Below the pieces are notes generated by a model. It was not told the origin of the DNA, did no database searches, and saw nothing but the letters and a program-made list of their open reading frames with translations. Shown here one piece after another: positions 23,460-53,217 of a stretch of DNA of 64,000 nt; the first letter of the stretch is position 1; each line of letters starts with the position of its first letter. The position numbers and the translations under genes were made by a program. This stretch comes from a virus, in IMG/VR virus record IMGVR_UViG_3300021136_000003, positions 1 to 64,000 of that record; one strand, given 5' to 3'.

Positions 23460-23488
23460 AGTATATCAGCAATATAAGTCGGAGTCAA
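23460..23488 (-). promoter_or_regulatory. sigma70 promoter, leaderless architecture
   Basis: TTGACT (23483-23488), 17-nt spacer, TATACT (23460-23465), then the ATG at 23453. Confidence 0.65.
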
Positions 23489-23503: not shown

Positions 23504-24982
23504 TCAACTAAAAAGAGGATTGGATATCGGTTCTTTAACGGGTTTTGTCTTTTTAACTTTAGGTACTTTGGGCGAGCCAAGACCAGTGAACCCTTGAGCC
23601 TGCCAGGCTAGTTCCTTATCGTCTATTACTTTAATGATCCGGTCCGACTGGTCATTATTATATCGATACTTGGTCCAATCTTGGTAGGTAATTTCATTTT
23701 TTATGAATTTTAAAAAATCAGACCATATTATGTTGTGTTTTAAACTACGAACATCAAGCCCGGTAAATTCGGACAACCGATCTAACATTTCTTCCACGTT
23801 ATCCTTCATATATTCGCAGATATATAGCTGATGTTGTAATATGTGGGCCCAGTCGTTCCGGCCGCAGTCCCTCATTTTACGCAATATAGACAATACTAAC
23901 TGGCCGTTTCCGGCCGCCGGCTCTAAAATTTTCATTGAAGGATCTGTGAAAATTTTAATATCCATTCTATCGATAAGTCTATCTGCTAATTCATCGCAAG
24001 TAAATATCTCAGCAGTTTGCCTGACTCTAGATTTGGACCTATCAGTTATCGTAACTAGAGTTTGTATGGTTTTTTTAGATTTTTTATTTGCCTTAAAATT
24101 TACCACATATGCGATCTCCTCGGCGGTCAATGAGAAATATTTAAAAATTTCGCTGTCAGTCATCCTTGTAAGTGGAATCACCGGTAAATTTTTAAAAACT
24201 AATTCATTACCGAACCCTGACCACTTCGCAGTATCAAAAATATACTTTATCAAAATTGAATTTAGATTGTGTGAAAGTGCCAAGCCTGATTGGTCGTCCG
24301 GTACCGACACATAATAACCCATATCAGTTGTACCATATACACCGTCATCATAGAAGGGTTTTGTATAGCCACTCCTGGTCCACATTACTTTTTTATCTCC
24401 GGCAAATGATTGTCTAATGCTGCTATACCAAATTTGGGGATTTGTATGGAAAATAGGAAATTGGTGCGCCGATGTCATAGTGCGCGAAATAGTAGAGTTA
24501 GCGTCCTTTAAAAGGACATTATGGCAGGTCACATAGTCGAACTTTACATTAAGTTTTGAGATATTAGGATTAAACATTACCTTTTTGTGTATGCTGGCAG
24601 CGATTGCACAAAAATCTGACGGCAGATAATAAATCGATTTATCTAGAAATAGCGAAGATAAACTTCCATCGCGCTCAATGAACGTGGTATTGATTCCGGA
24701 TTTTCCTTTTTTAATTACATAATCTGCAAACGTGCTATTAACGTTAAAAAACTTTTCCGTATCCAGTCCCAAATATTTTGTGTCATTATTTAATAGATAT
24801 GGCAATATTTTAGAGCTAGGGCTTAAAAAGCTATTGGGACTGATCTGACCCATTTCGCCGCCGACCTTTAACACCCGAAATATTTCGTGAGTAAAATCAA
24901 TCCACAATTTGTGAGGAGTTTTCTTTCTGTTTGTAATATCCTCAAAAGGAGGATTGGATATGCTTGCGTCGAACTCTATCAT
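23504..24982 (-). CDS. circularly permuted N6-adenine-type DNA methyltransferase
   Basis: A 492-residue protein. NPPF (residues 10-13) is catalytic motif IV. It is followed by LWIDFTHEIFRVLKVGGEMGQISPN, typical of Eco57I-type enzymes. The middle is probably the target-recognition region. FTCDELADRLIDRM is motif X and LEPAAGNGQLVLSI (about 353-366) is the AdoMet-binding motif I. The order IV-TRD-X-I means the chain is permuted, with the break between motifs III and IV. It overlaps the putative endonuclease gene by TAATG. The AT-rich composition is unlike the neighbouring ligase region. Confidence 0.82.
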   Translation of the reverse strand: MIEFDASISNPPFEDITNRKKTPHKLWIDFTHEIFRVLKVGGEMGQISPNSFLSPSSKILPYLLNNDTKYLGLDTEKFFNVNSTFADYVIKKGKSGINTTFIERDGSLSSLFLDKSIYYLPSDFCAIAASIHKKVMFNPNISKLNVKFDYVTCHNVLLKDANSTISRTMTSAHQFPIFHTNPQIWYSSIRQSFAGDKKVMWTRSGYTKPFYDDGVYGTTDMGYYVSVPDDQSGLALSHNLNSILIKYIFDTAKWSGFGNELVFKNLPVIPLTRMTDSEIFKYFSLTAEEIAYVVNFKANKKSKKTIQTLVTITDRSKSRVRQTAEIFTCDELADRLIDRMDIKIFTDPSMKILEPAAGNGQLVLSILRKMRDCGRNDWAHILQHQLYICEYMKDNVEEMLDRLSEFTGLDVRSLKHNIIWSDFLKFIKNEITYQDWTKYRYNNDQSDRIIKVIDDKELAWQAQGFTGLGSPKVPKVKKTKPVKEPISNPLFS

Positions 24983-26109
24983 TATTTAATTGCCTCTTTC
25001 AGGTATACATATGTGTTGATAGATGTATTTAGTTCTTTACATTTCTTGGGTCGCCGCTGATTATGCTGCACTATCATTTTATCTTTAGATTTATATTCCG
25101 GTGCGCCATCATGCCAGGCTCCGTTTTTATTTAAAGTGAATGGCACCATTACTTTTAAAATAATCCCTTCATCCTCAGCAGTCATACAAATACTTTTACC
25201 AGATGCTGAGAATTTAACCTGCATATTATCATTTTGTAATCGTTCGACCAGTTTTTTAAATTTCAAGTTTGTTATGCTATCAACAACCTGATCAGGGAAT
25301 AAACATAGCAATTCCCCTCCGTCAGAATCCATACCGGTCATTTTTAAAAAACGTTGTTTAATAACACTCGCCGGAAATGAACTCATCGCATCAATAGTGA
25401 GGGCAATCTGGTTATTACCATGGCTCTCGCAATCAGTTTTCCATTGATTTTCCACATCATCGGTGAACCACTCGGCGTAAGGTCCGACGGTGTATTTGAT
25501 TTTTACATCATCATTTATTTGTTTCGCCGATACAAACGCATTGACTAATTTAGTTTCGGAAATATTTTTATCTTTTGCCCACTCAGTGATGAACCTAATG
25601 CACTGGTCAGCTTTTTTAGTGCTGAATACCGTGCTGTTATATTCGCATTTACTGATGCTATGACTATCAAAGAGTAGATTTAATAAAAACGTTGTAAATG
25701 TGCCGGAACACACCTGTATATTTGCAAAGTCCTTGGAATAATTTTTCAACGAAATTTCTTTTTTACTGCCACCTGATAGTAAGAGTTCTATATCGCCCTT
25801 TTTTCGAGCAGCCCTACCCGCGACGGTCATATCGTATAAATCGAACGTTTGACCTGGATACTCCCTTGACCAACCCTCAATGATTGACTTGGCGTGTTTT
25901 TCCAGATTATTGTAATAAGGGCCGCTTTCCTTAAAGGTCTCGAAAGATGCAGGAATATTATTTAAATAGCGCAGAAAATCACTTTTTAAGATATTCGAAC
26001 GTCCTGTAGTTGTTGCTACATTTAGCTTTTCTGCTTCTTCCTGAAACCGATATGTTGCATATAGTTCGGCCGCAATTTGCGCCTTTTTTTGATTTAATTC
26101 TTTAGCCAT
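24982..26109 (-). CDS. putative restriction endonuclease (PD-(D/E)xK type)
   Basis: A 375-residue protein. KKGDIELLLSGG...KKEISLKNY carries D106, E118 and K122, a PD-(D/E)xK-like site with the variant S-L-K ending found in some type II enzymes. The rest has no recognised domain, as is usual for restriction enzymes. It is immediately upstream of, and coupled to, the methyltransferase. The start at 26109 lies downstream of the promoter at 26143-26171; the frame stays open to 26298. A conflicting role as an accessory or specificity protein cannot be excluded. Confidence 0.6.
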   Translation of the reverse strand: MAKELNQKKAQIAAELYATYRFQEEAEKLNVATTTGRSNILKSDFLRYLNNIPASFETFKESGPYYNNLEKHAKSIIEGWSREYPGQTFDLYDMTVAGRAARKKGDIELLLSGGSKKEISLKNYSKDFANIQVCSGTFTTFLLNLLFDSHSISKCEYNSTVFSTKKADQCIRFITEWAKDKNISETKLVNAFVSAKQINDDVKIKYTVGPYAEWFTDDVENQWKTDCESHGNNQIALTIDAMSSFPASVIKQRFLKMTGMDSDGGELLCLFPDQVVDSITNLKFKKLVERLQNDNMQVKFSASGKSICMTAEDEGIILKVMVPFTLNKNGAWHDGAPEYKSKDKMIVQHNQRRPKKCKELNTSINTYVYLKEAIK

Positions 26110-26142: not shown

Positions 26143-26171
26143 AGTATAACACAATACGGATTTATTGTCAA
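26143..26171 (-). promoter_or_regulatory. sigma70 promoter of the RM-like operon
   Basis: TTGACA (26166-26171), 17-nt spacer, TATACT (26143-26148) on the minus strand, 34 nt before the endonuclease-like ATG. No stop or terminator separates it from the gene at 26178. Confidence 0.75.
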
Positions 26172-35308: not shown

Positions 35309-35337
35309 ATTATAGCATACTATTTAGCACTTGTCAA
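35309..35337 (-). promoter_or_regulatory. consensus sigma70 promoter, leaderless architecture
   Basis: TTGACA (35332-35337), 17-nt spacer, TATAAT (35309-35314), then AAACCT and the ATG at 35302. Confidence 0.85.
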
Positions 35338-36160
35338 CCTTTAATAACTCTTCCATAGTGTAGAGCTTTTTCATATATAGTGACACCTCCTCAAGCACTG
35401 ACGAGGGCAGATCACCTGCTCTCCGCGGGCCATATTCAACATCAAAGTCAACGTCATTGACACGCTGAAACAGTCTGACCATCTCTGCTACAGTGTAACC
35501 TACCCCGTGTCCCAGACATTCAATCTGTCCGCTGGGTTTCTCTACCGCTGTACGAATCGCATTGCATATCTCCATGACATGGACATAGTCGCGCACACAG
35601 GTGCCGTCGTTACTACAGTCATAGTCGTTCCCGAAGATAGTGAACTCTCCTCGTTCCGGAGCCTTCATCAGATTGTACATCAGCCCATCGGGGTTAGTAG
35701 GCGCGATGCCATCTGAGCCTATCACATTATAGAATCGAAACATCGTGAATGGCATGCCACGCGATTCGCAGAACTCTCTGGTGCAATCTTCTGCTGCACG
35801 TTTACTGACACCATAGGGACTCGCACAACCATCTGCTGCTCCGGTGCTGGCCAGAATGAAGTTCTTTGTGCGGATATTTCGCAGCACATTCATGGTGCCA
35901 TTCAAGTTGGTGTCGTAATATTCATTAGGACGGAGAACACTTTCACCTACATTGACAAGAGCAGCCAGATGAATGACGGTGTCAAATTCTTCACCGTAGT
36001 AGGTAGGTGTCAATCGTCTGATATCCCAGCAGGTGTGATCATGGAGTTGAACCTGAGGTATCACAAGATCAATGCCATGTAGTTCATACTCATCCTTCAG
36101 CAACTTAGAAAGATGAGAGCCGATATATCCTGAGTTACCTGTTATCAATATTTTTTTCAT
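35324..36160 (-). CDS. NAD-dependent sugar-nucleotide epimerase (GalE-like SDR)
   Basis: A 278-residue extended short-chain dehydrogenase. GNSGYIGS (8-15) is the GxxGxxG cofactor loop and HLAALVNVGES follows the second strand. YGVSK carries the catalytic Tyr and Lys, with STG in front. It probably converts one UDP- or GDP-sugar into another. It is coupled to the glycosyltransferase gene upstream. Confidence 0.88.
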   Translation of the reverse strand: MKKILITGNSGYIGSHLSKLLKDEYELHGIDLVIPQVQLHDHTCWDIRRLTPTYYGEEFDTVIHLAALVNVGESVLRPNEYYDTNLNGTMNVLRNIRTKNFILASTGAADGCASPYGVSKRAAEDCTREFCESRGMPFTMFRFYNVIGSDGIAPTNPDGLMYNLMKAPERGEFTIFGNDYDCSNDGTCVRDYVHVMEICNAIRTAVEKPSGQIECLGHGVGYTVAEMVRLFQRVNDVDFDVEYGPRRAGDLPSSVLEEVSLYMKKLYTMEELLKVDKC

Positions 36161-37491
36161 AGTCCCTCGAATAATCCTGTTCCTGTGTTATTTTCTTCTG
36201 GCTCAAAGTCCGGATCTTTAGTCAGATAAGTATCCGTGTCCGTATAGATAATGCGGAACTTGTGCGCGTTAGTCAACACTGATTTAACATCATCAATACA
36301 AACGATTGAACGACCTAGCGCCTCGATGAAGTCACTATACTTCACCGTTTTCTCCAGACAAATCTTTGCGGTGTTGCTGTTAGATTGTTTACAGGTGAAT
36401 TCACTGAAACATTCATTCCATTTGCGAAACACCTTATTTTCTCGGGCCTGATGATATACCAGCGAACCGCCTTCATACCAAACCCACGCTTGAGTGGCAT
36501 GTTCATACCTATCCAGAATATCTTTAGCCATGTTCTTCTTGGTAGTGGTAAAGAAATACCCGTGATTGAAGTTTTGCGTCCAGCGTTGATTTTCTAAAGC
36601 ATAAGTCGGCATCTGAATCATCTGTTCCAGAAACGCAATTCCATAGCTTTCTACAGTGCTAGGATTGAACGCTACACGACAACTGGTGATGAAGTCAACT
36701 TTTTCTTGTCCGATGATACTGACAGCTATCTTGTAATCAGCACCCATCTTCTTCAGGCGTTCTTCAAACTTCTTTGCTCCGTTCGCATTAGTCATAACTC
36801 GCGCCGGCAACTTAGTCTGTTCAATCAAATCCAGATATAACTCGGGGTTCTTACCTTCTTCCCATCGTCCGATGAACAGCACACCCTCGCGAGGCGCGTG
36901 ATGTTCTTCTAGCAATCCCTTTTCCGGCAGCGGAATTGGCAGCACATACGCCTTGTCAATCTCCAGCGAGTTAAACTTACTCTGTGTGCCGATATAGATG
37001 TTGCTCATTTCCAGTTGCAGGCGCATCATTTCATTGACCCCGGGAAGAAACGGATTCTTTGTGTCTTTGAATATCTGACTTTCCAGATGAGTGTAGGCGA
37101 TGATCTGAATACAATCATCAAGTCCCATGGTTGATGCTACCTGAATGGTTTCGTATGTATTACATACTAGAGAGTCGTATATGTTCAGGCTAATCGCCTT
37201 GATAACTGAGTTGCGAAAGTTTGCCATCCGCTCGTAGCAAAAACTATCGCCGTACATGAAAATATTGCTATGTTCAGTATACGGCAACGATTCATCAGGA
37301 TATATAATAGTAGCATTTAATGATTTTACAAACTCGCTATCCTGTGGTTTCTTATCAGTTATGATATCGACCTTGATACCGTTAGCCGTCATCATTTCAA
37401 TAAAACTCTTGGCGAACTGTCCGATGCCACCGTGTGGCACCAGAGTCTGATAGCTTACCAGAAACCCAATCCGCTTAATGTATGTCCTCAT
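36157..37491 (-). CDS. GT-B fold glycosyltransferase (GT4-like)
   Basis: A 444-residue protein. The N-terminal domain has GFLVSYQTLVPHGGIGQFAK, a typical donor-side glycine loop. FIGRWEEGKNPELYLDLIEQ and FNPSTVESYGIAFLEQM (E-x7-E) form the nucleotide-sugar binding half. It probably transfers a sugar onto DNA, a glycan or a virion protein. It is coupled by overlap to the epimerase and QueE genes. Confidence 0.85.
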   Translation of the reverse strand: MRTYIKRIGFLVSYQTLVPHGGIGQFAKSFIEMMTANGIKVDIITDKKPQDSEFVKSLNATIIYPDESLPYTEHSNIFMYGDSFCYERMANFRNSVIKAISLNIYDSLVCNTYETIQVASTMGLDDCIQIIAYTHLESQIFKDTKNPFLPGVNEMMRLQLEMSNIYIGTQSKFNSLEIDKAYVLPIPLPEKGLLEEHHAPREGVLFIGRWEEGKNPELYLDLIEQTKLPARVMTNANGAKKFEERLKKMGADYKIAVSIIGQEKVDFITSCRVAFNPSTVESYGIAFLEQMIQMPTYALENQRWTQNFNHGYFFTTTKKNMAKDILDRYEHATQAWVWYEGGSLVYHQARENKVFRKWNECFSEFTCKQSNSNTAKICLEKTVKYSDFIEALGRSIVCIDDVKSVLTNAHKFRIIYTDTDTYLTKDPDFEPEENNTGTGLFEGL

Positions 37492-38396
37492 GCCATGCTC
37501 ACATATAAATGTTGTTGTAAGTTTAACTTAAATCCATGATTTAAGCAATAGTTTCCGGTATACTCATGGTTCGCTTGATTTTCAGCAAGATTGAGTAGAC
37601 CCGGTTCCCAGAATGAAACTTTTTCGTCAACGGTTGATCGTTCGGCCATGGTGATCTGACCCTTCTCGGCCCGTAATAGTTTGATCTTTTGTGGGAAGTC
37701 GTTATACACATTCATCGGCGAACAGTAGATTTCCTTGTTAGGATTATTCGCCTTCCATGTGTGTGCCCATTCAGGTACTGAACTATAAGGACTTTCCTTA
37801 TTGTTCGACATGACAAATTTCAGACAGTCTGCTCGTTCTAGAATGAACTTAGACGGTGCCAGATACTTGATAGCTTTCCCGTTCTTTTCTGAACACTTTG
37901 GAGAGCAAACAACTGTGACACCTGAGGATAGCGTTCGATCTATCGTTCCATTAGTCTCAACTTGCACTGCTTTGAAATGCGGAATCTGATTGTCCAGAAA
38001 CTTAGACAGATTAGATTGTAGCAGTGGCTCACCGCCTGTTACCACAAGAACAATGTTCGGGTATGGTCCTAGCCGGCCGGCCTCAACTGTACTAGGTAGA
38101 TTAGGAAGGGCCCAGCGCGGTACCATATCAAACGGGTTCTCCATGTTCCAGTGATTGCAAACAGTATGATACATACTTGATTCAATCTCGGTGTATGTCA
38201 TCCAATTACCATCATCAAAGAAGGTATCACAGAATGAACAGGCCAGATTGCACTTACCCAGTCTGATAAACATCGCTGGCATACCTGCATATGGTCCCTC
38301 ACCTTGTAGAGTGAAAAACATCGAGGTCACATACAGCGAATCTGCTGGCGCATCTTTAAAATACTTCTGACCGATTATTTCATTTGTTCCAAACAT
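37488..38396 (-). CDS. queE: QueE, 7-carboxy-7-deazaguanine synthase
   Basis: A 302-residue radical SAM enzyme. FFTLQGEGPYAG is the family opening. C49/C53/C56 (CNLACSFC) binds the 4Fe-4S cluster; GGEPLL follows, then VQVETNGT. It makes 7-carboxy-7-deazaguanine from carboxytetrahydropterin, step three of the preQ0 pathway. It is longer than many bacterial QueE (about 220), with an insert around residues 60-105 like other phage forms. Coupled to queD by TAATG overlap. Confidence 0.9.
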   Translation of the reverse strand: MFGTNEIIGQKYFKDAPADSLYVTSMFFTLQGEGPYAGMPAMFIRLGKCNLACSFCDTFFDDGNWMTYTEIESSMYHTVCNHWNMENPFDMVPRWALPNLPSTVEAGRLGPYPNIVLVVTGGEPLLQSNLSKFLDNQIPHFKAVQVETNGTIDRTLSSGVTVVCSPKCSEKNGKAIKYLAPSKFILERADCLKFVMSNNKESPYSSVPEWAHTWKANNPNKEIYCSPMNVYNDFPQKIKLLRAEKGQITMAERSTVDEKVSFWEPGLLNLAENQANHEYTGNYCLNHGFKLNLQQHLYVSMA

Positions 38397-38866
38397 TAAA
38401 ATTCCTTATCTTCACGGTGACCTTGACGCATTGCCATATTGCTAGGTGTCTCTCGTACTTCTACTTTGCAACACCAAACTCGTTCTGCTTCTGCTACGCC
38501 ACAGTTCGGCAAAAATTCATTGTTCACATACCAATATAAAAAGTCAGCAAGACCTTCGCATCCTGTCTTTTCAACTTCAGTGATCTTTGCCAGACCAAGT
38601 GTGCCAAGATTCTTGATGACCTCATAATGTGGGTCATCTTGCGCCAACAGCATACAGTGATCAAACTTATCCTCGAGGAAATCTTTCAGAGGTCGCAACC
38701 CGCCATAATCAAAACACCAGTTGCGGGCATCAAGTGTGTCACATTCAAATTCAAACTTGAAAGTAAGAGCATAACCGTGAATGAGGTTACAGTGAGAATC
38801 TGAGCGCCATTGACGGTACGCAATCGGGGCAAGATGTGAATATTCTTTTGTGCTTATATATTTCAT
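38396..38866 (-). CDS. queD: QueD, 6-carboxytetrahydropterin synthase
   Basis: A 156-residue protein of the PTPS/QueD family. SHCNLIHGYALTFKFEFE contains zinc histidines in the HGHxY-type motif. WCFDYGGLRPLKDFLEDKFDH provides the catalytic acid and a further metal histidine region. CEGLADFLYWYVN holds the substrate-binding glutamate. It converts dihydroneopterin triphosphate, the product of FolE, into carboxytetrahydropterin for QueE. Confidence 0.85.
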   Translation of the reverse strand: MKYISTKEYSHLAPIAYRQWRSDSHCNLIHGYALTFKFEFECDTLDARNWCFDYGGLRPLKDFLEDKFDHCMLLAQDDPHYEVIKNLGTLGLAKITEVEKTGCEGLADFLYWYVNNEFLPNCGVAEAERVWCCKVEVRETPSNMAMRQGHREDKEF

Positions 38867-38867
38867 A

Positions 38868-39269
38868 TTAGTCTTTGTATAGATGTGGTTTTTGACTGAT
38901 ACGCAGATTGATACGTTCCTGTACTAGGGCGTTATCGTCTGCTGAGGATTGCCAGTCGTTCCTGAACTCTGGATCAAAATTCCAAAATGCGGTACTACGA
39001 AGCACATCAGGTGAGTACCCTCTGCTTTTCATTTCCCTTACAAGGTTATGGAACCTGACGCGCAGAAACTCCTGCTTGTCATAGAAGAATCGCACATGTC
39101 CTGTTCCAAGAGTGAACTTTTCGGGAATGCTTGCTAGAATCGCGTCTTTAGTTTTAGTTCGCAGTGCCCGTTTCAGTGCAGCCGGAACCATAGTAATCTC
39201 TCGTAGTTCAGCAACCAGATGCCTACGATGTAGCGTAGCTGGATCGATATTGGCGTTAATGCGTGTCAT
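38868..39269 (-). CDS. denV: pyrimidine dimer DNA glycosylase (DenV/T4 endonuclease V)
   Basis: A 133-residue protein, near the 138 of T4 DenV. It starts MTRIN, supplying Thr2 as the nucleophile, and LVAELREI contains Glu24, aligned with T4 catalytic Glu23. TLGTGHVRFFYDKQEFLRVR matches the conserved core and RISQKPHLYKD the end. It cuts at UV-induced cyclobutane dimers. The ATG is 6 nt after TATAAT, so the mRNA should be leaderless. Confidence 0.9.
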   Translation of the reverse strand: MTRINANIDPATLHRRHLVAELREITMVPAALKRALRTKTKDAILASIPEKFTLGTGHVRFFYDKQEFLRVRFHNLVREMKSRGYSPDVLRSTAFWNFDPEFRNDWQSSADDNALVQERINLRISQKPHLYKD

Positions 39270-39274
39270 GCGCT

Positions 39275-39303
39275 ATTATAACATGAGTTGATGTTAAAGT
39301 CAA
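39275..39303 (-). promoter_or_regulatory. sigma70 promoter of denV, leaderless architecture
   Basis: TTGACT (39298-39303), 17-nt spacer, TATAAT (39275-39280), then AGCGC and the ATG at 39269. Confidence 0.8.
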
Positions 39304-39309
39304 CAGTTG

Positions 39310-39576
39310 TTATACCATTTCTTCAATGATACCCAAAATCTCTGCTACCGCAAAAAATATACCTGCTAGGAATAGGGTACCGAATGACAGATTATATGCT
39401 GCTATTATGCGTGGCCCGCTTTTGGCAAAGCTGATGTATTTGTGAAGTTTTGGGTCAGGATGTGCGGTTTTCAGCTGGACGTAGCCAACTCCGTCTTCCC
39501 ATTTCTTGCCTTCTACCGCATCTACTTTGTCCTTCAATGCTTTCATTATCTCTATTTGTTCTTCATATTCTTTCAT
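39310..39576 (-). CDS. small phage protein with one membrane segment
   Basis: An 88-residue protein. The N-terminal half is charged and helical (MKEYEEQIEIMKALKDKVDA). Near the C-terminus LSFGTLFLAGIFFAVAEIL is a likely membrane helix. It overlaps the cytidylyltransferase gene by 4 nt. Function unknown. Confidence 0.6.
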   Translation of the reverse strand: MKEYEEQIEIMKALKDKVDAVEGKKWEDGVGYVQLKTAHPDPKLHKYISFAKSGPRIIAAYNLSFGTLFLAGIFFAVAEILGIIEEMV

Positions 39577-40043
39577 TTGGTTTCCTTTGATAGTTCTGAT
39601 TGGTATACACGTTGGCGTAGATTACTGCTGCTGAAACTGTGGTCACGCCCATTAAAGACGATTTCGATGTTGCGGCGCATACAGATATCTCTTCCGGTAA
39701 ATGGAACGTCTTTATACTCTACACCCAAAATACGAACATCAACTGGCAGAATAAGAAGCAGGTCTTCGAGGTCCTTCTCAGTCTCATAGATAACAACTTC
39801 ATCCACATTACGATTCGTGCCCAGCTGTATCTGACGCTCAACAATGCTCTGCACCGGCTTGTTTTTAATACCCGGACGATCAATAGTCGGATCAGTTTGT
39901 AGTCCAGCGATTAGATAGTCACAGTGATTCTTTGCTTCAGCAAGCATTGCCACGTGACCTGCATGAAAAAGATCCCATGTACTGAAAGTTATTCCTATTA
40001 TTTTACCTTGCTTTTTTAATTTTTTCATTTCATTTAAAACCAT
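39573..40043 (-). CDS. cytidylyltransferase (TagD-like)
   Basis: A 156-residue protein. TFSTWDLFHAGHVAML holds the HxGH nucleotidyltransferase motif and RDHSFSSSNLRQRV is the ISTS-like end. It most resembles glycerol-3-phosphate cytidylyltransferase. I chose 40043 because GAGG lies 10 nt upstream; it overlaps the end of the homing gene by 10 nt. It would supply a CDP-activated unit for the glycan genes around it. Confidence 0.8.
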   Translation of the reverse strand: MVLNEMKKLKKQGKIIGITFSTWDLFHAGHVAMLAEAKNHCDYLIAGLQTDPTIDRPGIKNKPVQSIVERQIQLGTNRNVDEVVIYETEKDLEDLLLILPVDVRILGVEYKDVPFTGRDICMRRNIEIVFNGRDHSFSSSNLRQRVYQSELSKETK

Positions 40044-40750
40044 TTTTTTACCTCTTTGCTTAAACACTCTGATTTACCTGACATACATAACTTCGGTATA
40101 TATTTAAAATCCGTATTCATTTTTAAAATATTTTGTTCTCGTAGGAAACATTCATATAGAGATCCGTTGACTATCCAGCATACTTTACCACCATTATTTT
40201 TTATAAAATTATAATACCTGGACCGGAGATTTATCGTAATCCCCACTTTATAAAACTTAGTACCATCTATATCGTTTAGCTCCAGAAAATAAAGTACGGC
40301 CGGCTTACTTTTAAGTTCTGGTTGTTTGTCAAACACCTTATCACAATATTTTCCTGGGCCCGAACTGGCAGTACATATCTTACACCCTGCCCCATTTTTA
40401 TGAAGTTCTGGTTTTTGCCAAAACTCGCCATGCTTAGGACAAAACATCCTCATCTTTATACTGTTACGAATATAAGTTGCATCATCATAAAAATAGTATC
40501 CATTATGAGTTTGCAAAAACTGTTCCTTTATATTATCCCACTTACACGCAGCGTTGTCACCTTTGCATTTGGGACATCCGTGTCCTCCTAAATGATCTGA
40601 TGGCTTCTGTGAAAAATCACCATGTTCAGGGCAAGTTATATTTACCTTTTGTAACATTGCAATGTAAATAACATTTTCATATTCGTATTTTCCGGAATGA
40701 ATTTTAAAGGCTCGTTTAATAAATTCCTCTTTCGTTGTTCTTTTTGTCAC
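40034..40750 (-). CDS. homing endonuclease-like protein with zinc repeats and T5orf172 GIY-YIG domain
   Basis: A 238-residue protein with a GTG start. Two repeats with the pattern F...H-G-Y...CP-HG-F-QKP-HL-G-GC-KC (residues about 15-60 and 75-125) form zinc-binding DNA-recognition modules. The C-terminal region AVLYFLELNDIDGTKFYKVGITINL is a GIY-YIG-related domain. A late promoter and AAGGAG site precede it. It is strongly AT-rich and inserted in line with the cytidylyltransferase gene on the same strand. Confidence 0.8.
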   Translation of the reverse strand: MTKRTTKEEFIKRAFKIHSGKYEYENVIYIAMLQKVNITCPEHGDFSQKPSDHLGGHGCPKCKGDNAACKWDNIKEQFLQTHNGYYFYDDATYIRNSIKMRMFCPKHGEFWQKPELHKNGAGCKICTASSGPGKYCDKVFDKQPELKSKPAVLYFLELNDIDGTKFYKVGITINLRSRYYNFIKNNGGKVCWIVNGSLYECFLREQNILKMNTDFKYIPKLCMSGKSECLSKEVKKWF

Positions 40751-40768
40751 GGTGTTACTCCTTTTCAG

Positions 40769-40776
40769 TATTTATC
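40769..40776 (-). promoter_or_regulatory. T4-type late promoter motif for homing gene
   Basis: GATAAATA on the minus strand, then AAAAGGAG and the GTG start at 40750. Confidence 0.6.
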
Positions 40777-40806
40777 ACCGCCTGCGTGTTTTATGTCAAA
40801 AGTTCT

Positions 40807-41116
40807 TTACTCTTGTTGAATATCATCTATTATTTCCTCAATGATAGGTCGGTCTTCGATTCCCGAGGTGACGCTATATTTCTTCCCACATATCTGATAC
40901 TCGTCCGTCCAACTGTGTTGATTGTTACTTGAACTATCAGGTGTTGTCAACTCAAAAACAGTAGTAAGATGCTCATACTCGACACCCAGATATCTGGCGT
41001 CGCTCAGGCCCCATTATTGTACGAAGCCATGCACGACTTTGTTCTGGTGTCATCGCTGCATGTTTTTCTCTGATAGATTTCCAGTCAGCCTCATTGAGGT
41101 GTCGTGTGTTCATCAT
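40807..41116 (-). pseudogene. frameshifted small phage gene
   Basis: The first part (MMNTRHLNEADWKSIREKHA) runs from 41116 to a stop at 40973. The second part, in the +1 frame, reads LSDARYLGVEYEHLTTVFEL and continues to a stop at 40807. Joined across the GGGGCC run near 41008-41013 it would give one protein of about 102 residues. An extra G in the run (GGGG for GGG), or programmed +1 slippage, would explain it. The start has AAGGGGA upstream. Function unknown. Confidence 0.6.
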
Positions 41117-41261
41117 CTGTCCCCTTTTTGGTGCAGGTGCATCGGCGACCCTGGTCACAATCATGTGTACACGCAGACTCTCCGGCATACTTGTTTGCGT
41201 ACCATAGCAATCCCATTACGATAATATAAGACACACCAATGATACAAATTATTTCTGTCAT
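41091..41261 (-). CDS. small membrane-anchored cysteine-rich protein
   Basis: A 56-residue protein. MTEIICIIGVSYIIVMGLLW is a membrane helix. It is followed by a short Cys-rich tail (CTHDCDQGRRCTC). The start overlaps the folE stop (ATGA), and the end overlaps the frameshifted gene. It may be an envelope-associated peptide. Confidence 0.5.
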   Translation of the reverse strand: MTEIICIIGVSYIIVMGLLWYANKYAGESACTHDCDQGRRCTCTKKGTDDEHTTPQ

Positions 41262-41938
41262 ATACTACCTTGTCTGGCTATTTGATAGAACTCTGCCCGG
41301 GCAGCGGGATCAGTTTTGAATCCGCCACCAAGCTTGCTGGTCACTGTTGAACTACCGGTATCTTCAACACCGCGGGAAGCAACACATAGATGCTCTGCTT
41401 CAATCATAACCGCAATGTCATCTGTTTCCAAAATGAATTGCAGGGCATGATAAATCTGTTCAGTTAGTCGTTCCTGAATCTGAGGGCGCTTACTGAAATA
41501 TTCAACTACACGATTAATTTTACTCAGTCCAAGTACCTTTTCTTTAGGTACATACGCGACTGTCGCTTTTCCTACGATAGGAAGTATGTGGTGTTCGCAA
41601 GTAGAATACACAGCAACTCCGCGTTCGACGACCATTTCATCGTATTTCATTTTGTTCTGGACAGTGGTACATTTAGGGAATGCTTCAAAATCAAGCCCCC
41701 ATAGCACTTCGTTTACCGCCATTTTAGCCCAGCGCTTTGGAGTTTCGGCGAGGGAATCATCAGTGAGATCCATTCCGAGAACCATCATGATTTCAGTGAA
41801 GTATTTTTCAATAACATCAATCTTGTCTTTTCGATCAAACGGTGTTGGCAATGTGGGAGTTTCAACTCCACATTTGACCAGATGTTCGTGAACTTGTTGA
41901 CCCAATTCTGGATCCGTCTTCTGTTTATTGTATGACAT
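41258..41938 (-). CDS. folE: FolE, GTP cyclohydrolase I
   Basis: A 226-residue protein. STCEHHILPIVGKATVAYVP has the zinc Cys/His pair, GLSKINRVVEYFSKRPQIQERLT and EAEHLCVASRGVEDTGSSTVT complete the active site. It makes dihydroneopterin triphosphate from GTP, the first step of the preQ0 pathway. I chose the ATG at 41938 because AAGGAAGG lies just upstream; the frame is open to 41983. Confidence 0.92.
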   Translation of the reverse strand: MSYNKQKTDPELGQQVHEHLVKCGVETPTLPTPFDRKDKIDVIEKYFTEIMMVLGMDLTDDSLAETPKRWAKMAVNEVLWGLDFEAFPKCTTVQNKMKYDEMVVERGVAVYSTCEHHILPIVGKATVAYVPKEKVLGLSKINRVVEYFSKRPQIQERLTEQIYHALQFILETDDIAVMIEAEHLCVASRGVEDTGSSTVTSKLGGGFKTDPAARAEFYQIARQGSI

Positions 41939-42027
41939 ATGTACCTTCCTTTGTGATGGTATGTTTTTGATTTTTGAGACCATTGTGTCTCATACTTATT
42001 TATCTGTTGTATCGGCGTTTGTAATTT

Positions 42028-44279: not shown

Positions 44280-45041
44280 TCATTTTCTTTCTATGTCCTC
44301 TTCTATACATTCGGTGCCGTATTGAACTTCAAGGATATGAACATTAGTGTCAGTGTTATTCTGACCCTGATGCCATACTTCTTTGCCGATGTTGTAAGTT
44401 TCGTTTTCACGAATATTAATACGCTGGAACATATCTAAATATGTTGTACCAATGTCACATTCACCTTTAAGGATGTACCAATGTTCTTCACGCTTAAAGT
44501 GACGTTGCATCGACAACATCTTACCAGGTTCAATGACTAACTCTTTTACTTTGTATCCCGGTGCTTCATGTAGCACACGATAGTAACCCCATTGGCGGAA
44601 TGTTTTAGGGCTTTTCCATTCTTCAAGAATCCAGGACGAACTATTTATTTTGTTCTCACCGCCGATGCCAAACTTGAAGATGATATCCTTAATTCGCATT
44701 TCGGGAATGTTCACCGCTGTCCGGTCTCCGCCGTTTGCGAATATGATCGGAAAGCCGGGATAAAATGCTTTGACTTTTTCAAGCAAGTCACACGCCGACC
44801 CATCACTATCATCGAATGCCATTACTTCATCAACAGCTTTCATGTTGTTGACAATAGCAGAACGCTCGGACCAAGGCAAAAATGCTCTGCCCTTCTTACG
44901 CACCAGCCATTCATCGCTGTTGACTCCGACGATAAGATAGTTGCCGTAAGTCTTTGCAGAGTTAAGCAACAGAATATGTCCAGAGTGAACAGGATCGAAC
45001 CCCCCAGACACAACTACTATGCAGTCTTTATGGACGAGCAT
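44280..45041 (-). CDS. cytidylyltransferase-cupin fusion
   Basis: A 253-residue protein. GGFDPVHSGHILLL is the HxGH nucleotidyltransferase site, with VGVNSDEWLVRKKG and FANGGDRT as in HldE-type ADP-/CDP-sugar synthases. The C-terminal 110 residues begin FRQWGYYRVLHEAPGYKVKE. They continue with MQRHFKREEHWYILKGE, a mannose-6-phosphate isomerase/GMP-type cupin. The fusion couples sugar activation with isomerisation, probably for heptose- or mannose-type units. Confidence 0.85.
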   Translation of the reverse strand: MLVHKDCIVVVSGGFDPVHSGHILLLNSAKTYGNYLIVGVNSDEWLVRKKGRAFLPWSERSAIVNNMKAVDEVMAFDDSDGSACDLLEKVKAFYPGFPIIFANGGDRTAVNIPEMRIKDIIFKFGIGGENKINSSSWILEEWKSPKTFRQWGYYRVLHEAPGYKVKELVIEPGKMLSMQRHFKREEHWYILKGECDIGTTYLDMFQRINIRENETYNIGKEVWHQGQNNTDTNVHILEVQYGTECIEEDIERK

Positions 45042-48838: not shown

Positions 48839-49564
48839 ATGACTATTTATTATCTCTATGTTAAGACCCATAAAATAACAGGTCTTAAATATCTCGGCTA
48901 CACAGGAAAAGCAGACCCATATAAATACCTCGGTTCCGGTGAGTATTGGAAAACACATCTCAAAAAACATGGAAAAGAAATCACGACGGAAATATTACAT
49001 GAATGCCAATCTAAAACAGAAATCAAAGATCGCGGGTTGTATTACAGCGAATTATGGAATGTAGTGGATGCCTGTGATGTCCTGGGCAAAAAGACTTGGG
49101 CCAACCTAAAACCTGAAGCCGGGGAAGGTGGTGATTGTGGTCCTAAAGGACGAGCGGAAATTTCACGCAAAGGTAAAGGACGGACACATTCTGATCTAAC
49201 TAAGCGTAAAATGAGCTATTCACATACTGGTACCATAATGTCTGGCATTACCAAGGAAAAGATAGGACTTAAAAACGCCGGCAAGAAACACACGGATGCC
49301 TTCTGTGATTTACATCGAGGGCCCAATAACAAGTTTTTTGGTACAGGCCCGTTTAACGGAAAAACTCACTCCATCGAGACTAAGGAGAAGATTAGTGCCA
49401 AAAATACAGGGAGAAAGCACACCGAGGAGGCCCGTCTAAACATAAGCAAAAAGATGGCCGGAATAAAAATGGCTGAAGTGACTTGTCCCCATTGCTCCAA
49501 AGTAGGAGCAGGAGGGGCAATGAAACAATGGCACTTTGATAAGTGTAAGTTTAACCGAAGGTGA
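48839..49564 (+). CDS. GIY-YIG homing endonuclease with NUMOD3-like repeats
   Basis: A 241-residue protein. IYYLYVKTHKITGLKYLGYT is the GIY-YIG pair, KYLGSGEYWKTHLKKHG follows. There are three NUMOD3-like repeats (SDLTKRKMSYSH, SIETKEKISAKN, TEEARLNISKKM). It ends in CPHCSK...HFDKC. It lies between the clamp and the polymerase C-terminal gene and shares its leader and C-terminus with three other homing genes. The stop region overlaps the polymerase gene by 14 nt. Confidence 0.87.
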   Translation: MTIYYLYVKTHKITGLKYLGYTGKADPYKYLGSGEYWKTHLKKHGKEITTEILHECQSKTEIKDRGLYYSELWNVVDACDVLGKKTWANLKPEAGEGGDCGPKGRAEISRKGKGRTHSDLTKRKMSYSHTGTIMSGITKEKIGLKNAGKKHTDAFCDLHRGPNNKFFGTGPFNGKTHSIETKEKISAKNTGRKHTEEARLNISKKMAGIKMAEVTCPHCSKVGAGGAMKQWHFDKCKFNRR

Positions 49565-50798
49565 ATAGAGAATCAACTGTAGAGTTGGTGTCTGTATTGG
49601 AACGTAAGTCCCAGTTCATAACACCGAGTAAGTTGTCGATCTTTTCATCAACTAACGTCTTTTCCATTAATAGATTGTCGAACGGAAGTTCTTTGAACCA
49701 TTCTGGCAATCTCATTTCATCAACTGGGTATGCAATGCTGGTGTAACCCAATGGGTTGTTTTTCAGCTTACATACCACAATCTTCATGCCATCCATGATC
49801 TTCATTGAGTAGTTGTCGTTATGGACTCGACGCAGCCAGTTCCAGTTGATAGCAGCCCGAACGTGACCAGGCATGTTTGCCCTGCCTGTTCGACTTTTCT
49901 CTTCCGCTTCACCATACATCGTCAGCTTGTTAACTGACTTAGGCGAACCCTTTGTCCATCCGTCTTGGTTGCCCAATTCAGTTTTGAACGTCTTGATAAC
50001 CTCAATGATATCCTGACGATCTTTACCATCAAGGACCATCTCCAACACTCGCATCAGGAACTCTTGAACATACTTAGGTGTGTCAGCGCGTTTCAGATCA
50101 AGACCCATAGCCTTGATTTGACCAATGCCGAATCTGACACCGTTCTTCTTAGCCTTGTCCATGTCATACTGATCCAGACGCTTGCCTTCTTTGTCGTAGA
50201 TGTTCAGAGCATACCGCTTCTTAGTGATAAACAACGACCGATCAGCAACCAGTTCTCGACCTGCTTTGATGATTTCGCCGTTCTTGCGTGGAGCATGAAA
50301 CGACTTCTCCATAAAGCCAGCGAACCCGTCATTGATCTGATCAGCGATATTGTCGTACAACTGAATAGCAACGTCTTTGCTCCAAGTCATTGTGCTAGCA
50401 GCAACTTCATCCTTCATCAGAGGCCATGCAGAGAAATAACAAGAGTCAGTGTCACCGTATACGATTGCTTGCCCGGTGTAGTCATACTCTCCGGTGACGA
50501 TTTCATTGATGTGTGCGCTCATGTGCTTCACAATCTGCCTGCCTGATAGAGTAACCGATTGACCGATACGCTTATCGTAGAAACGACAGTGTTCATTCAA
50601 CAGGGCACCGTAAGCTGAGTTCAACAAAATCTTTCTGACCAGTTGTCGCTTGTCCCAATAATCTGTAAATTCCTTTATTTTCTCCTGTGAAGCGACTATC
50701 TTCCCATTTTTAATCACAAGGTTATGCAACTTCATATATTGTCGCAATTCCGATACATTTCTGGTTTTTACCAAGTGTTTAATATGTTCTACATCCAT
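49551..50798 (-). CDS. 43: DNA polymerase gp43, C-terminal part
   Basis: A 415-residue fragment of a family B polymerase. KILLNSAYGALLNEH (about 56-70) is motif B with K56, N60, Y63 and G64. YGDTDSCYFS (about 112-121) is motif C with the two catalytic aspartates. The C-terminus ends SLFTFG, like the clamp-binding tail SLDFLFG of T4 gp43. It has no exonuclease domain or motif A; these are encoded at 51526-53217. The start MDVEHIKH has no good ribosome site. Confidence 0.9.
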   Translation of the reverse strand: MDVEHIKHLVKTRNVSELRQYMKLHNLVIKNGKIVASQEKIKEFTDYWDKRQLVRKILLNSAYGALLNEHCRFYDKRIGQSVTLSGRQIVKHMSAHINEIVTGEYDYTGQAIVYGDTDSCYFSAWPLMKDEVAASTMTWSKDVAIQLYDNIADQINDGFAGFMEKSFHAPRKNGEIIKAGRELVADRSLFITKKRYALNIYDKEGKRLDQYDMDKAKKNGVRFGIGQIKAMGLDLKRADTPKYVQEFLMRVLEMVLDGKDRQDIIEVIKTFKTELGNQDGWTKGSPKSVNKLTMYGEAEEKSRTGRANMPGHVRAAINWNWLRRVHNDNYSMKIMDGMKIVVCKLKNNPLGYTSIAYPVDEMRLPEWFKELPFDNLLMEKTLVDEKIDNLLGVMNWDLRSNTDTNSTVDSLFTFG

Positions 50799-50821
50799 TT
50801 TTGCATAATCTTTCTGTCAAT

Positions 50822-50829
50822 GATAAATA
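50822..50829 (+). promoter_or_regulatory. T4-type late promoter motif for homing gene
   Basis: GATAAATA on the plus strand, then TATTTATAGGAG and the ATG at 50848. Confidence 0.6.
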
Positions 50830-50847
50830 GTATTTATAGGAGATAAT

Positions 50848-51546
50848 ATGGGGTTAAATAAAAAATACAATGAAAGCACTTACTCTGCTGCCGTAAAAAA
50901 ACTCGGTTACACCGCGTTGGAACCTTATAATGGTATCACCTTTAAAATAAATCATATGTGTCATACCTGTAACAATATTTGGAATACGCAACCCAGGCAA
51001 GTCTTGAATGGAATAGGTTGTCGTCATTGTTTCCAGTTGAGAGTTCGCAAACCGATTGACTTGGTAAAGACGAGTTTATTGCCCGGTCAATGGGAAATAG
51101 TTGACGATAACGAATACAAAAACTCATATTTACCGCTGCATTTTAAACACCATTGTGGTCATATAGTAAAGTCTTCCCTCGAGGTAATATTACGCACTGA
51201 CGAACACCGCAAACGTTGTCCGGTTTGCACCCCACATAAAATAAGAGAAGGAACGTGGTCAAAACCAGTCGAACATGATGGCCGTAAATATTCATCAACC
51301 TTGGAGGCAACGTGCTGTGAATATCTTATTGGTAAGTTTGGATTATCGGATATCATATTACAAAAAGAATATTCGGTTGATGATAGAAGAACAGCGGATG
51401 CATATATTAAAAGTTTGGATACTTATGTAGAAGTTAGCAGTATAGGAAAAGAATGGTATTTAGAAAGGATTTACAGAAAACGGGATCTTGTAAAAAACTT
51501 CATCTTCGTGTCATCCCTTTCTCAACTACGGACTATGATTAAGTAA
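50848..51546 (+). CDS. putative homing endonuclease, VSR/PD-(D/E)xK-like
   Basis: A 232-residue protein. The N-terminal half has zinc-knuckle pairs (CHTCNNIW...GCRHC and CGH...CPVC). The C-terminal third has EYSVDDRRTADAYIKSLDTYVEVSS. Its D...E-V-S pattern resembles the core of very-short-patch-repair/PD-(D/E)xK nucleases, where Lys is replaced by Ser. AGGAG lies upstream. The gene occupies the interval that splits the DNA polymerase and lies on the opposite strand. The end overlaps the N-terminal polymerase gene by 21 nt. Confidence 0.7.
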   Translation: MGLNKKYNESTYSAAVKKLGYTALEPYNGITFKINHMCHTCNNIWNTQPRQVLNGIGCRHCFQLRVRKPIDLVKTSLLPGQWEIVDDNEYKNSYLPLHFKHHCGHIVKSSLEVILRTDEHRKRCPVCTPHKIREGTWSKPVEHDGRKYSSTLEATCCEYLIGKFGLSDIILQKEYSVDDRRTADAYIKSLDTYVEVSSIGKEWYLERIYRKRDLVKNFIFVSSLSQLRTMIK

Positions 51547-53217
51547 AGCTACCATTTCATCGTCTACATCTATCCCCGCGGCAAGTTCAGAACAGAGTTT
51601 CATTTTCCGTTGTTGAGCCTTACGATCACTGTACCACTTACCAAGTAGTCCCGGGATGATACCTTGATTAGCATACGAGAAGATCGTGCCGTTCGCACTG
51701 ATCATCCATGGATTGTGACTGTCAAAGATCATCTTCCAGATTTCAGCAGCACTTTTCTCCTCAGTGCGTCCATCTTCGTAGTCAATCGTCAGCAGAGTGC
51801 CGCGTTCTTGGTTCATGATCGAGGTGTATTCTAACGACCCGAACAAACCTTCCCAGAGGACACTTCCCGTCACATCATCGTCGCCATCTTTGTGGCGTTT
51901 CTTCTCACGTGCCAGTCTCATGCCCTTTTCGTGCATGAACTGATCTGTCAGTGTTTGTCTGACCTGAGCAATGATGGTTTCTGGCGCCATGTTAAGCGCC
52001 CGGATCGTTGAGGGATAGAGCGAGTTAATGTCAACTGCTCCGACCCATTCGTGAATTCCCTTTTTGGGAGTAGCAACATAGGCACCTGCCGCTTGTTGTT
52101 GGATATCATCATTTTCAACCCTTCGTTTTTTATCAGGAACTACCAGACCATGATCATGAGCTTCGTTCATGATCGCCATTTCAACCATTGCCACTGTACC
52201 CATGACAACCGGAATCAACACGGTGTTTTCGTGTGCCAGTTGATTTGCCAGTTCAAGAAAGTGAACTTTAGCATGGATCTTATATACCAACTTCGTATCT
52301 TGTCTGTTGTATTCAATGAACTTTTTGAAGTCTTTGTTATACAACTGATCCAGAGTACCCTCGTATGAAGTCTTGTTTTCGTGAACTTCTAACTCGCCAA
52401 TAGCATCTAGTTTGTAGCTGTGGCGACTCTCGTAGTTGTACTTTTTGTAGAGTTGAAGATAGTCAAGATGAATACGACCGATCAAGTCGTAAGTTGTTTC
52501 TTCTTTGCCGAAGCGTTCGTATGTGCGAGCCTTAGGTAGCTGACCTAGTAAACAGAACTTTCGTGTGTCGTTCTTGCTCATAACTCGGGTGACACGATTA
52601 ACCATGTAGGGTATGTCGTATCCTTCAGAGTTCCAACCAGTTAACACATCGGCATCGTCAATCAACTGAAAGAACACATCGAACATGTCCTTCTCACTGG
52701 TGAACAGCATGGTGTCCTCGAACGAATCGCAGATTTCTTGTGCTGTCTCCGGCGTCATGTGCTTAGGAGCAATGACAAGAGTGACAAGACGATCAAGCCA
52801 GTCAAGATACATTGAGATAGCAGTGATCTTGTTCATCGCTTCTGATGCAGGGGAGAAGCCTTTGTCAGGATCGAAGTCAGTTTCAATGTCGAAGAAGCAA
52901 GTGTGAAGTTTGGGAGCATCAATGTTGCGATAGTTCTCACTAAGGCATCTGCCCACAACGCCAATATCACTCTCAAACATTTTCTTGCCGGAGTTTATTC
53001 GTCGTTCTTTTTCAAACTCTGTTCGCTTTCGGCAGGAGAATCGACTGACCGGGAGTGCGGTGCCCGCACTCAGCCCGCGATACTTGCCTTTGGGATCCGC
53101 GTAGTAAAATGTATAGTTTGCCTGATACTCTTTATACTGACGCTTACCGTCCTTGTCCCGTTCTACAACAACGATCTGCTCAGAGTCTTTATTGTGGATT
53201 GCGTCAACAAATGACAT
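51526..53217 (-). CDS. 43: DNA polymerase gp43, N-terminal part
   Basis: A 563-residue fragment of a T4-type polymerase. FFDIETDFD (about 108-116) is exonuclease motif I, GWNSEGYDIPYM is Exo II and YNRQDTKL is Exo III. DINSLYPS is polymerase motif A. The chain stops after the helix KWYSDRKAQQRKMKL (fingers) and LLNHSP. Motifs B and C are on the downstream gene. Together the two parts give about 978 residues versus 898 in T4 gp43. They must associate in trans or be spliced. Confidence 0.92.
   Translation of the reverse strand: MSFVDAIHNKDSEQIVVVERDKDGKRQYKEYQANYTFYYADPKGKYRGLSAGTALPVSRFSCRKRTEFEKERRINSGKKMFESDIGVVGRCLSENYRNIDAPKLHTCFFDIETDFDPDKGFSPASEAMNKITAISMYLDWLDRLVTLVIAPKHMTPETAQEICDSFEDTMLFTSEKDMFDVFFQLIDDADVLTGWNSEGYDIPYMVNRVTRVMSKNDTRKFCLLGQLPKARTYERFGKEETTYDLIGRIHLDYLQLYKKYNYESRHSYKLDAIGELEVHENKTSYEGTLDQLYNKDFKKFIEYNRQDTKLVYKIHAKVHFLELANQLAHENTVLIPVVMGTVAMVEMAIMNEAHDHGLVVPDKKRRVENDDIQQQAAGAYVATPKKGIHEWVGAVDINSLYPSTIRALNMAPETIIAQVRQTLTDQFMHEKGMRLAREKKRHKDGDDDVTGSVLWEGLFGSLEYTSIMNQERGTLLTIDYEDGRTEEKSAAEIWKMIFDSHNPWMISANGTIFSYANQGIIPGLLGKWYSDRKAQQRKMKLCSELAAGIDVDDEMVALLNHSP

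What the first reader, a model, noticed from the sequence alone, without database searches (positions are those of the whole stretch)
23504..26109. Phage-borne restriction-modification-like pair
A permuted adenine-type methyltransferase with NPPF and EPAAGNG motifs is coupled by a TAATG overlap to a protein with a D106/E118/K122 PD-(D/E)xK-like site, under its own sigma70 promoter. A complete restriction pair in a lytic phage is unusual. It could destroy competing phage DNA or host DNA while protecting its own.
Basis: partly seen in the sequence, partly recalled or inferred. Interest (0 to 1): 0.7.

Follow-up and report, generated by a model that had tools for sequence, protein, structure and literature searches.

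The report
Phage-borne restriction–modification gene pair
A large bacteriophage carries an early-type two-gene module, predicted to be a DNA-cutting enzyme of a new sequence family paired with an unusually rearranged DNA-methylating enzyme; the same pair recurs in 36 other viral contigs and two bacterial genomes, so phages probably use it to cut unmarked host or rival DNA while sparing their own.

Summary
R (window 26109-24985, 375 aa) matches no Pfam, NCBIfam or PADLOC family and no solved structure by sequence. Its AlphaFold model (pLDDT 84) matches the restriction enzymes HinP1I (Z 9.2) and MspI (Z 6.6) best. M (24982-23504, 492 aa) is a permuted N6-adenine-type methyltransferase: motif IV and the specificity region come first, the SAM-binding motif I last. 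In nearly all relatives M is split into two overlapping genes. Of 49 other viral loci that could be assessed, 36 have M within 1.3 kb downstream of R; two bacterial genomes also carry the pair, once in opposite orientation. R and M distances correlate (Mantel r 0.63, 0/5000). Thirteen cyanophage-type loci keep R under purifying selection without M. The module has its own near-consensus sigma-70 promoter. Best reading: a new family of Type II-like R-M system used by large phages against unmodified host or rival DNA. Recognition site, cleavage and methylation are untested.

The parts
26143..26171 (-). sigma-70-type promoter TTGACA-N17-TATACT
   Evidence: 11 of 12 consensus matches with a 17-nt spacer; 20 such sites in the window versus 0.98 expected, all on the minus strand.
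24982..26109 (-). R gene: 375-aa predicted PD-(D/E)xK restriction endonuclease (HinP1I/MspI-like fold)
   Evidence: homologues in 52 viral contigs, two isolated cyanophages and two bacterial genomes; AlphaFold pLDDT 84; HinP1I Z 9.2; invariant E15, D106, K122, Q132.
24980..24984 (-). TAATG stop/start overlap between R and M (probable translational coupling)
   Evidence: comparable TAATG or TGATG junctions in most of the 22 directly adjacent relatives.
23504..24982 (-). M gene: 492-aa permuted N6-adenine-type DNA methyltransferase, both halves fused
24085..24982 (-). M N-terminal half: motif IV (NPPF) plus conserved probable target-recognition region
   Evidence: NPPF in 14 of 14 homologues, 50-57% identity to the window protein even in bacterial members; Pfam Eco57I for the L009 homologue 1.6e-8.
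23507..24085 (-). M C-terminal half: SAM-binding motif I (EPAAGNG); a separate overlapping gene in most relatives
   Evidence: profile matches M.BseCI at 4.5e-9; separate overlapping ORFs in most paired viral loci.
23460..23488 (-). next promoter, for the downstream gene; marks the end of the two-gene unit
   Evidence: TTGACT-N17-TATACT.

Best explanation
The pair is a self-contained Type II-like restriction-modification operon. M methylates an adenine within a specific sequence on the phage's own replicating DNA. R, a PD-(D/E)xK endonuclease of the HinP1I/MspI kind, cuts unmethylated copies of the same site in host chromosome or competing phage and plasmid DNA early in infection, when the host RNA polymerase reads the sigma-70 promoter. 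Shown: gene arrangement, motifs, promoter, conserved linkage, predicted fold and invariant candidate active-site residues. Inferred: enzymatic activities, shared specificity of R and M, timing, and the benefit (host DNA degradation or superinfection exclusion).
For: R model pLDDT 84, pTM 0.80; the PDB chains at about Z 5 or more are all PD-(D/E)xK nucleases: HinP1I 9.2 (220 of 247 residues, rmsd 4.6), HinP1I apo 8.0, MspI 6.6, ACE1 5.5 and 4.9. E15, D106, K122 and Q132 are invariant and S120 nearly so in 34-40 homologues. M has NPPF and (D/E)PxxGxG motifs, matches M.BseCI, and PADLOC Type II methyltransferase model PDLC03273 matches a relative's halves in swapped order. M lies within 1.3 kb of R in 36 of 49 assessable viral loci, 22 of them directly adjacent, and next to R in both bacterial genomes, one in opposite orientation. 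Mantel r 0.63, 0/5000. dN/dS of R 0.08-0.17 in divergent pairs. One bacterial copy sits near a Type III Res endonuclease domain. Own promoter.
Against: No biochemistry. R has no sequence-level link to any known restriction enzyme; Foldseek E-values are weak (0.07 at best), and Z 9.2 is only a little above the usual best Z (7-8) of models without a clear match. Thirteen viral loci of a cyanophage-type clade keep R without M. The site-avoidance test gave no clean recognition site. A second structure prediction did not finish.
Confidence: 0.8

Rival explanations
1. R is an active sequence-specific nuclease used mainly to degrade host or rival DNA, and M is only an optional shield; phages without M protect themselves by other base modification or by lacking the site.
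For: Thirteen cyanophage-type loci keep R under purifying selection with the same active-site residues but no M; the two isolated cyanophages with R alone carry other annotated DNA methyltransferases elsewhere in the genome.
Against: The paired form is the majority (36 of 49) and is also found in two bacterial genomes; it differs from the best explanation mainly in emphasis.
Confidence: 0.12
2. R is a non-restriction partner of the methyltransferase, for example a specificity or regulatory subunit, or a recombination nuclease such as a Holliday junction resolvase, and the pair is not restriction-modification.
For: Hjc appears among weaker structural matches (Z 3.6); R lacks a classical (D/E)xK acid, having SxK instead.
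Against: HinP1I also lacks the classical acid (own knowledge: SDX18QXK) and scores far higher; linkage to a methyltransferase, including in bacteria, is typical of restriction rather than resolvase genes.
Confidence: 0.06
3. M acts only as an anti-restriction methylase shielding the phage from host enzymes, and R is a decayed or unrelated neighbour.
For: Methyltransferases without a restriction enzyme are common in phages (PMC4190342 for lactococcal phages; PMC4081073); R diverges faster than M.
Against: R is intact in all complete loci, shows dN/dS about 0.1, co-diverges with M, and is retained even where M is lost.
Confidence: 0.02

Closest known systems
HinP1I (G^CGC) and MspI (C^CGG) Type IIP restriction endonucleases
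   Same: Nearest solved folds to the R model (Z 9.2 and 6.6); a D then xK active site in which the usual acid of (D/E)xK is replaced (Q in HinP1I, from own knowledge; S here).
   Different: No detectable sequence similarity; R is about 125 residues longer, with a conserved C-terminal KNGAW...RRP.K..E..TS.N block; the known partners of HinP1I and MspI are cytosine methyltransferases (own knowledge), here an N6-adenine-type one.
M.BseCI and gamma-type N6-adenine methyltransferases; Alw26I/Eco31I/Esp3I methyltransferases (TIGR02987); Eco57I domain
   Same: Motif I half matches M.BseCI (4.5e-9) and TIGR02987 (2e-6); motif IV half matches Pfam Eco57I.
   Different: Order of the halves is swapped (IV and specificity region first, I last) and they are usually two overlapping genes.
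Permuted split methyltransferases of T4-like phages (PHROG 3689 plus 21201/4376/11371)
   Same: Same kind of two halves in the same swapped order, as neighbouring genes.
   Different: There the first half is fused to a GIY-YIG domain (Klebsiella phage PKO111), a T5orf172-like domain (Aeromonas phage Ah1) or a helicase (Synechococcus phage MA01), not accompanied by a separate HinP1I-like R.
Virus-encoded restriction systems: chlorovirus CviAII and others, phage P1 EcoP1I, predicted Mom-REase fusions of jumbo phages
   Same: Same logic of cutting foreign DNA while protecting viral DNA (PMC4081073; PMC7824862; EcoP1I from own knowledge).
   Different: Unrelated enzymes and architectures; this one is a Type II-like pair in large tailed phages, where Type II enzymes are said to occur rarely (PMC4081073).

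Membership tests
Type II restriction-modification system | endonuclease gene linked to a cognate DNA methyltransferase gene | tested here: met
   Linkage in 36 of 49 assessable viral loci plus 2 of 2 bacterial loci; Mantel r 0.63. Cognate specificity itself not tested.
Type II restriction-modification system | separate endonuclease without ATP-dependent translocase domain | tested here: met
   R is a single 375-aa protein with no helicase family hits; one REase-fold match spans its length.
Type II restriction-modification system | site-specific cleavage blocked by the partner's methylation | not testable with these tools
   Needs biochemistry.
PD-(D/E)xK nuclease superfamily | REase fold with conserved D and (D/E/other)xK residues | tested here: met
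   Predicted model Z 9.2 to HinP1I, 6.6 to MspI; D106 and K122 invariant.
HinP1I/MspI group | recognisable sequence similarity or shared specificity | tested here: inconclusive
   No sequence match; specificity unknown; fold similarity only.
N6-adenine DNA methyltransferase | motif IV (D/N/S)PP(Y/F) and SAM motif I | tested here: met
   NPPF in 14 of 14 and (D/E)PxxGxG in 15 of 15 aligned sequences; M.BseCI match 4.5e-9.
N6-adenine DNA methyltransferase | methylates N6 of adenine | not testable with these tools
   Needs long-read methylation data or an assay.

The most novel reading that the evidence does not exclude
Large tailed phages share a family of offensive restriction systems built from one permuted, split methyltransferase chassis combined with interchangeable nucleases (HinP1I-like, GIY-YIG, T5orf172, helicase-type); some cyanophages have discarded the methyltransferase and keep the HinP1I-like nuclease as a stand-alone weapon against host or rival DNA.
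Probability: 0.35. Interest if true: 0.75.

Novelty: new variant of a known kind. Interest (0 to 1): 0.6.

Why it matters
A major review states that Type II restriction enzymes rarely occur on bacteriophages (PMC4081073), and a jumbo-phage survey predicts offensive restriction from other domain types (PMC7824862). Here is a recurrent, intact, two- to three-gene system in many environmental phages of at least two lineages, with a restriction-enzyme family absent from the family libraries searched and a methyltransferase of rearranged, usually split design. It gives a directly testable case of restriction used by viruses as a weapon, suggests a function for an uncharacterised gene of cyanophages P-RSM6 and S-SZBM1, and may supply enzymes with new specificities.

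Tried and rejected
Recognition site from site avoidance: the two R-only cyanophages lack CCGG, the MspI site, entirely, but so do related cyanophages in the stretches examined, so this was rejected as general avoidance. CGATCG was absent from both and present in all six controls, but one R-only contig (L028) contains it and R+M loci are intermediate; inconclusive. Identity of the ~360-375-aa gene between R and M in 14 loci (10 aligned): no useful Pfam, PHROG or PDB match; it looked ParB-like by eye, not supported. R in plasmids: none. Wider bacterial survey by the genome search: not available for a virus record. Second AlphaFold model (R of L009) for an independent fold search did not finish in time. 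Families missing from the structural hit list are not excluded. HinP1I paper PMC1074309 is not held, so its active-site motif is cited from own knowledge.

Full report
Observation. On the minus strand the window holds R (26109-24985, 375 aa) and M (24982-23504, 492 aa), joined by a TAATG stop/start overlap. A near-consensus sigma-70 promoter, TTGACA-N17-TATACT, lies at 26171-26143; the window has 20 such sites where about one is expected, all on the minus strand, and the next one (23488-23460) follows M, so the pair is probably one transcription unit. The window is part of a 121-kb virus record with rIIA, rIIB, DNA ligase and a split DNA polymerase whose nearest named relatives are mostly jumbo phages.

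R family. R has no Pfam, NCBIfam, PADLOC or sequence-level PDB match and only weak PHROG hits. Searches found it in isolated cyanophages S-SZBM1 and P-RSM6, in 52 IMG/VR contigs and in two bacterial genome assemblies, a Limnochordia MAG and Geodermatophilus sp. LHW52908. AlphaFold gives a confident model (pLDDT 84, pTM 0.80). Foldseek ranks HinP1I and MspI first with weak E-values (0.07-0.4), and VIA-align gives HinP1I Z 9.2 over 220 of 247 residues at rmsd 4.6, MspI Z 6.6, ACE1 5.5; Hjc, EcoRV, HincII, SwaI and I-Ssp6803I follow at Z 2.9-3.6 among unrelated chains. All four chains at Z 5 or more are PD-(D/E)xK nucleases. Z 9.2 alone is only modestly above background, so the fold assignment rests on that coherence plus the residue pattern D106-x13-S120-x-K122, which resembles the acid-less motif of HinP1I (own knowledge).

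M family. M is an N6-adenine-type methyltransferase with swapped halves. The first 300 residues carry NPPF and a strongly conserved, probably target-recognising region, 50-57% identical to homologues including bacterial ones. The last part carries (D/E)PxxGxG; its family profile matches M.BseCI (4.5e-9), and the window protein matches TIGR02987. A PADLOC Type II methyltransferase model matches the two halves of a relative in the opposite order, the motif I half only weakly. In the paired viral loci the halves are two overlapping ORFs, except in L051, where they are fused as in the window, and in L011, where the contig ends first.

Linkage. Of 49 other viral loci with enough downstream sequence, 36 have M after R: 22 directly adjacent, mostly with TAATG or TGATG overlaps, and 14 with about 1.1-1.25 kb between; in the 10 of these examined the gap holds a gene of unknown family. 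Thirteen, cyanophage-type where examined, have R alone. Several of the contigs are near-duplicates, so these counts are not all independent; 27 non-redundant paired loci remain after removing R sequences 97% identical or more and fragments. In the Limnochordia contig R, M_N and M_C are collinear and near a Type III Res endonuclease domain; in Geodermatophilus the M genes point the other way. Distances of R and M_N correlate across the 27 loci (r 0.63, 0 of 5000 permutations). Outside R and M the window shares almost nothing with these contigs, so the module appears to move as a unit. R is under purifying selection in both paired and solitary loci (dN/dS 0.08-0.17 in divergent pairs). Solitary R genes group with paired ones of cyanophage-like contigs, consistent with loss of M; P-RSM6 and S-SZBM1 carry other annotated DNA methyltransferases elsewhere, and neither has a match to the window's M.

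Context. Similar swapped methyltransferase halves occur in other large phages with different nucleases or helicases fused to the motif IV half: GIY-YIG in Klebsiella phage PKO111, T5orf172 (just below the family cut-off) in Aeromonas phage Ah1, a ResIII-like helicase in Synechococcus phage MA01. This suggests a methyltransferase chassis with exchangeable partners; it is an inference.

Specificity. Site counts did not reveal the target. Cyanophages avoid CCGG generally; CGATCG avoidance was suggestive but broken by one contig.

Interpretation. The best explanation is a Type II-like restriction-modification system carried by phages, R cutting unmodified host or rival DNA and M marking the phage's own. 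A review calls Type II enzymes rare on bacteriophages (PMC4081073), and offensive use of restriction by jumbo phages has been predicted for other domain combinations (PMC7824862). I therefore rate it a new variant of a known kind: known logic and fold, new R family, unusual M design, unexpected carriers. Activity, specificity and role are untested.

Noticed in passing
window 37488-42000 (-): QueE-like (37491-38396), QueD/PTPS-like (38429-38821) and GTP cyclohydrolase I (41261-41983) genes suggest a 7-deazaguanine pathway, possibly for DNA modification; no QueC or TGT found in the record.
   Followed up: partly
window, minus strand, 20 sites: Twenty near-perfect TTGACA-N17-TATAMT promoters, all on the minus strand, versus about one expected; a strong early promoter set.
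   Followed up: partly
window 49551-53217 (-): DNA polymerase split into two genes.
   Followed up: no
L012:9180-10256, L016:5805-6929 and similar loci: A ~360-375-aa gene of no known family sits between R and M in a subset of viral loci (10 aligned).
   Followed up: partly
L077:1521-3456, L078:1303-3480, L003:2619-6861: Permuted split methyltransferases whose first half is fused to GIY-YIG, T5orf172-like or helicase domains in Klebsiella, Aeromonas and Synechococcus phages.
   Followed up: partly
L060-L073 (cyanophage genomes): CCGG is essentially absent from all eight cyanomyovirus sequences examined (85-391 expected each); single phages also lack GTAC, TTAA, GCGC or CGCG.
   Followed up: partly
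BFVD A0A0E3I1W5, A0A8D9C8Y9, A0A3G5AE67: Uncharacterised proteins of Synechococcus phage ACG-2014c, a marine phage and Satyrvirus are Foldseek matches of the R model at probability 1.00.
   Followed up: no
window 35327-37491, 44283-45041 (-): Sugar-nucleotide epimerase, glycosyltransferase-like and cytidylyltransferase/cupin genes in the phage, perhaps for glycan or DNA decoration.
   Followed up: no
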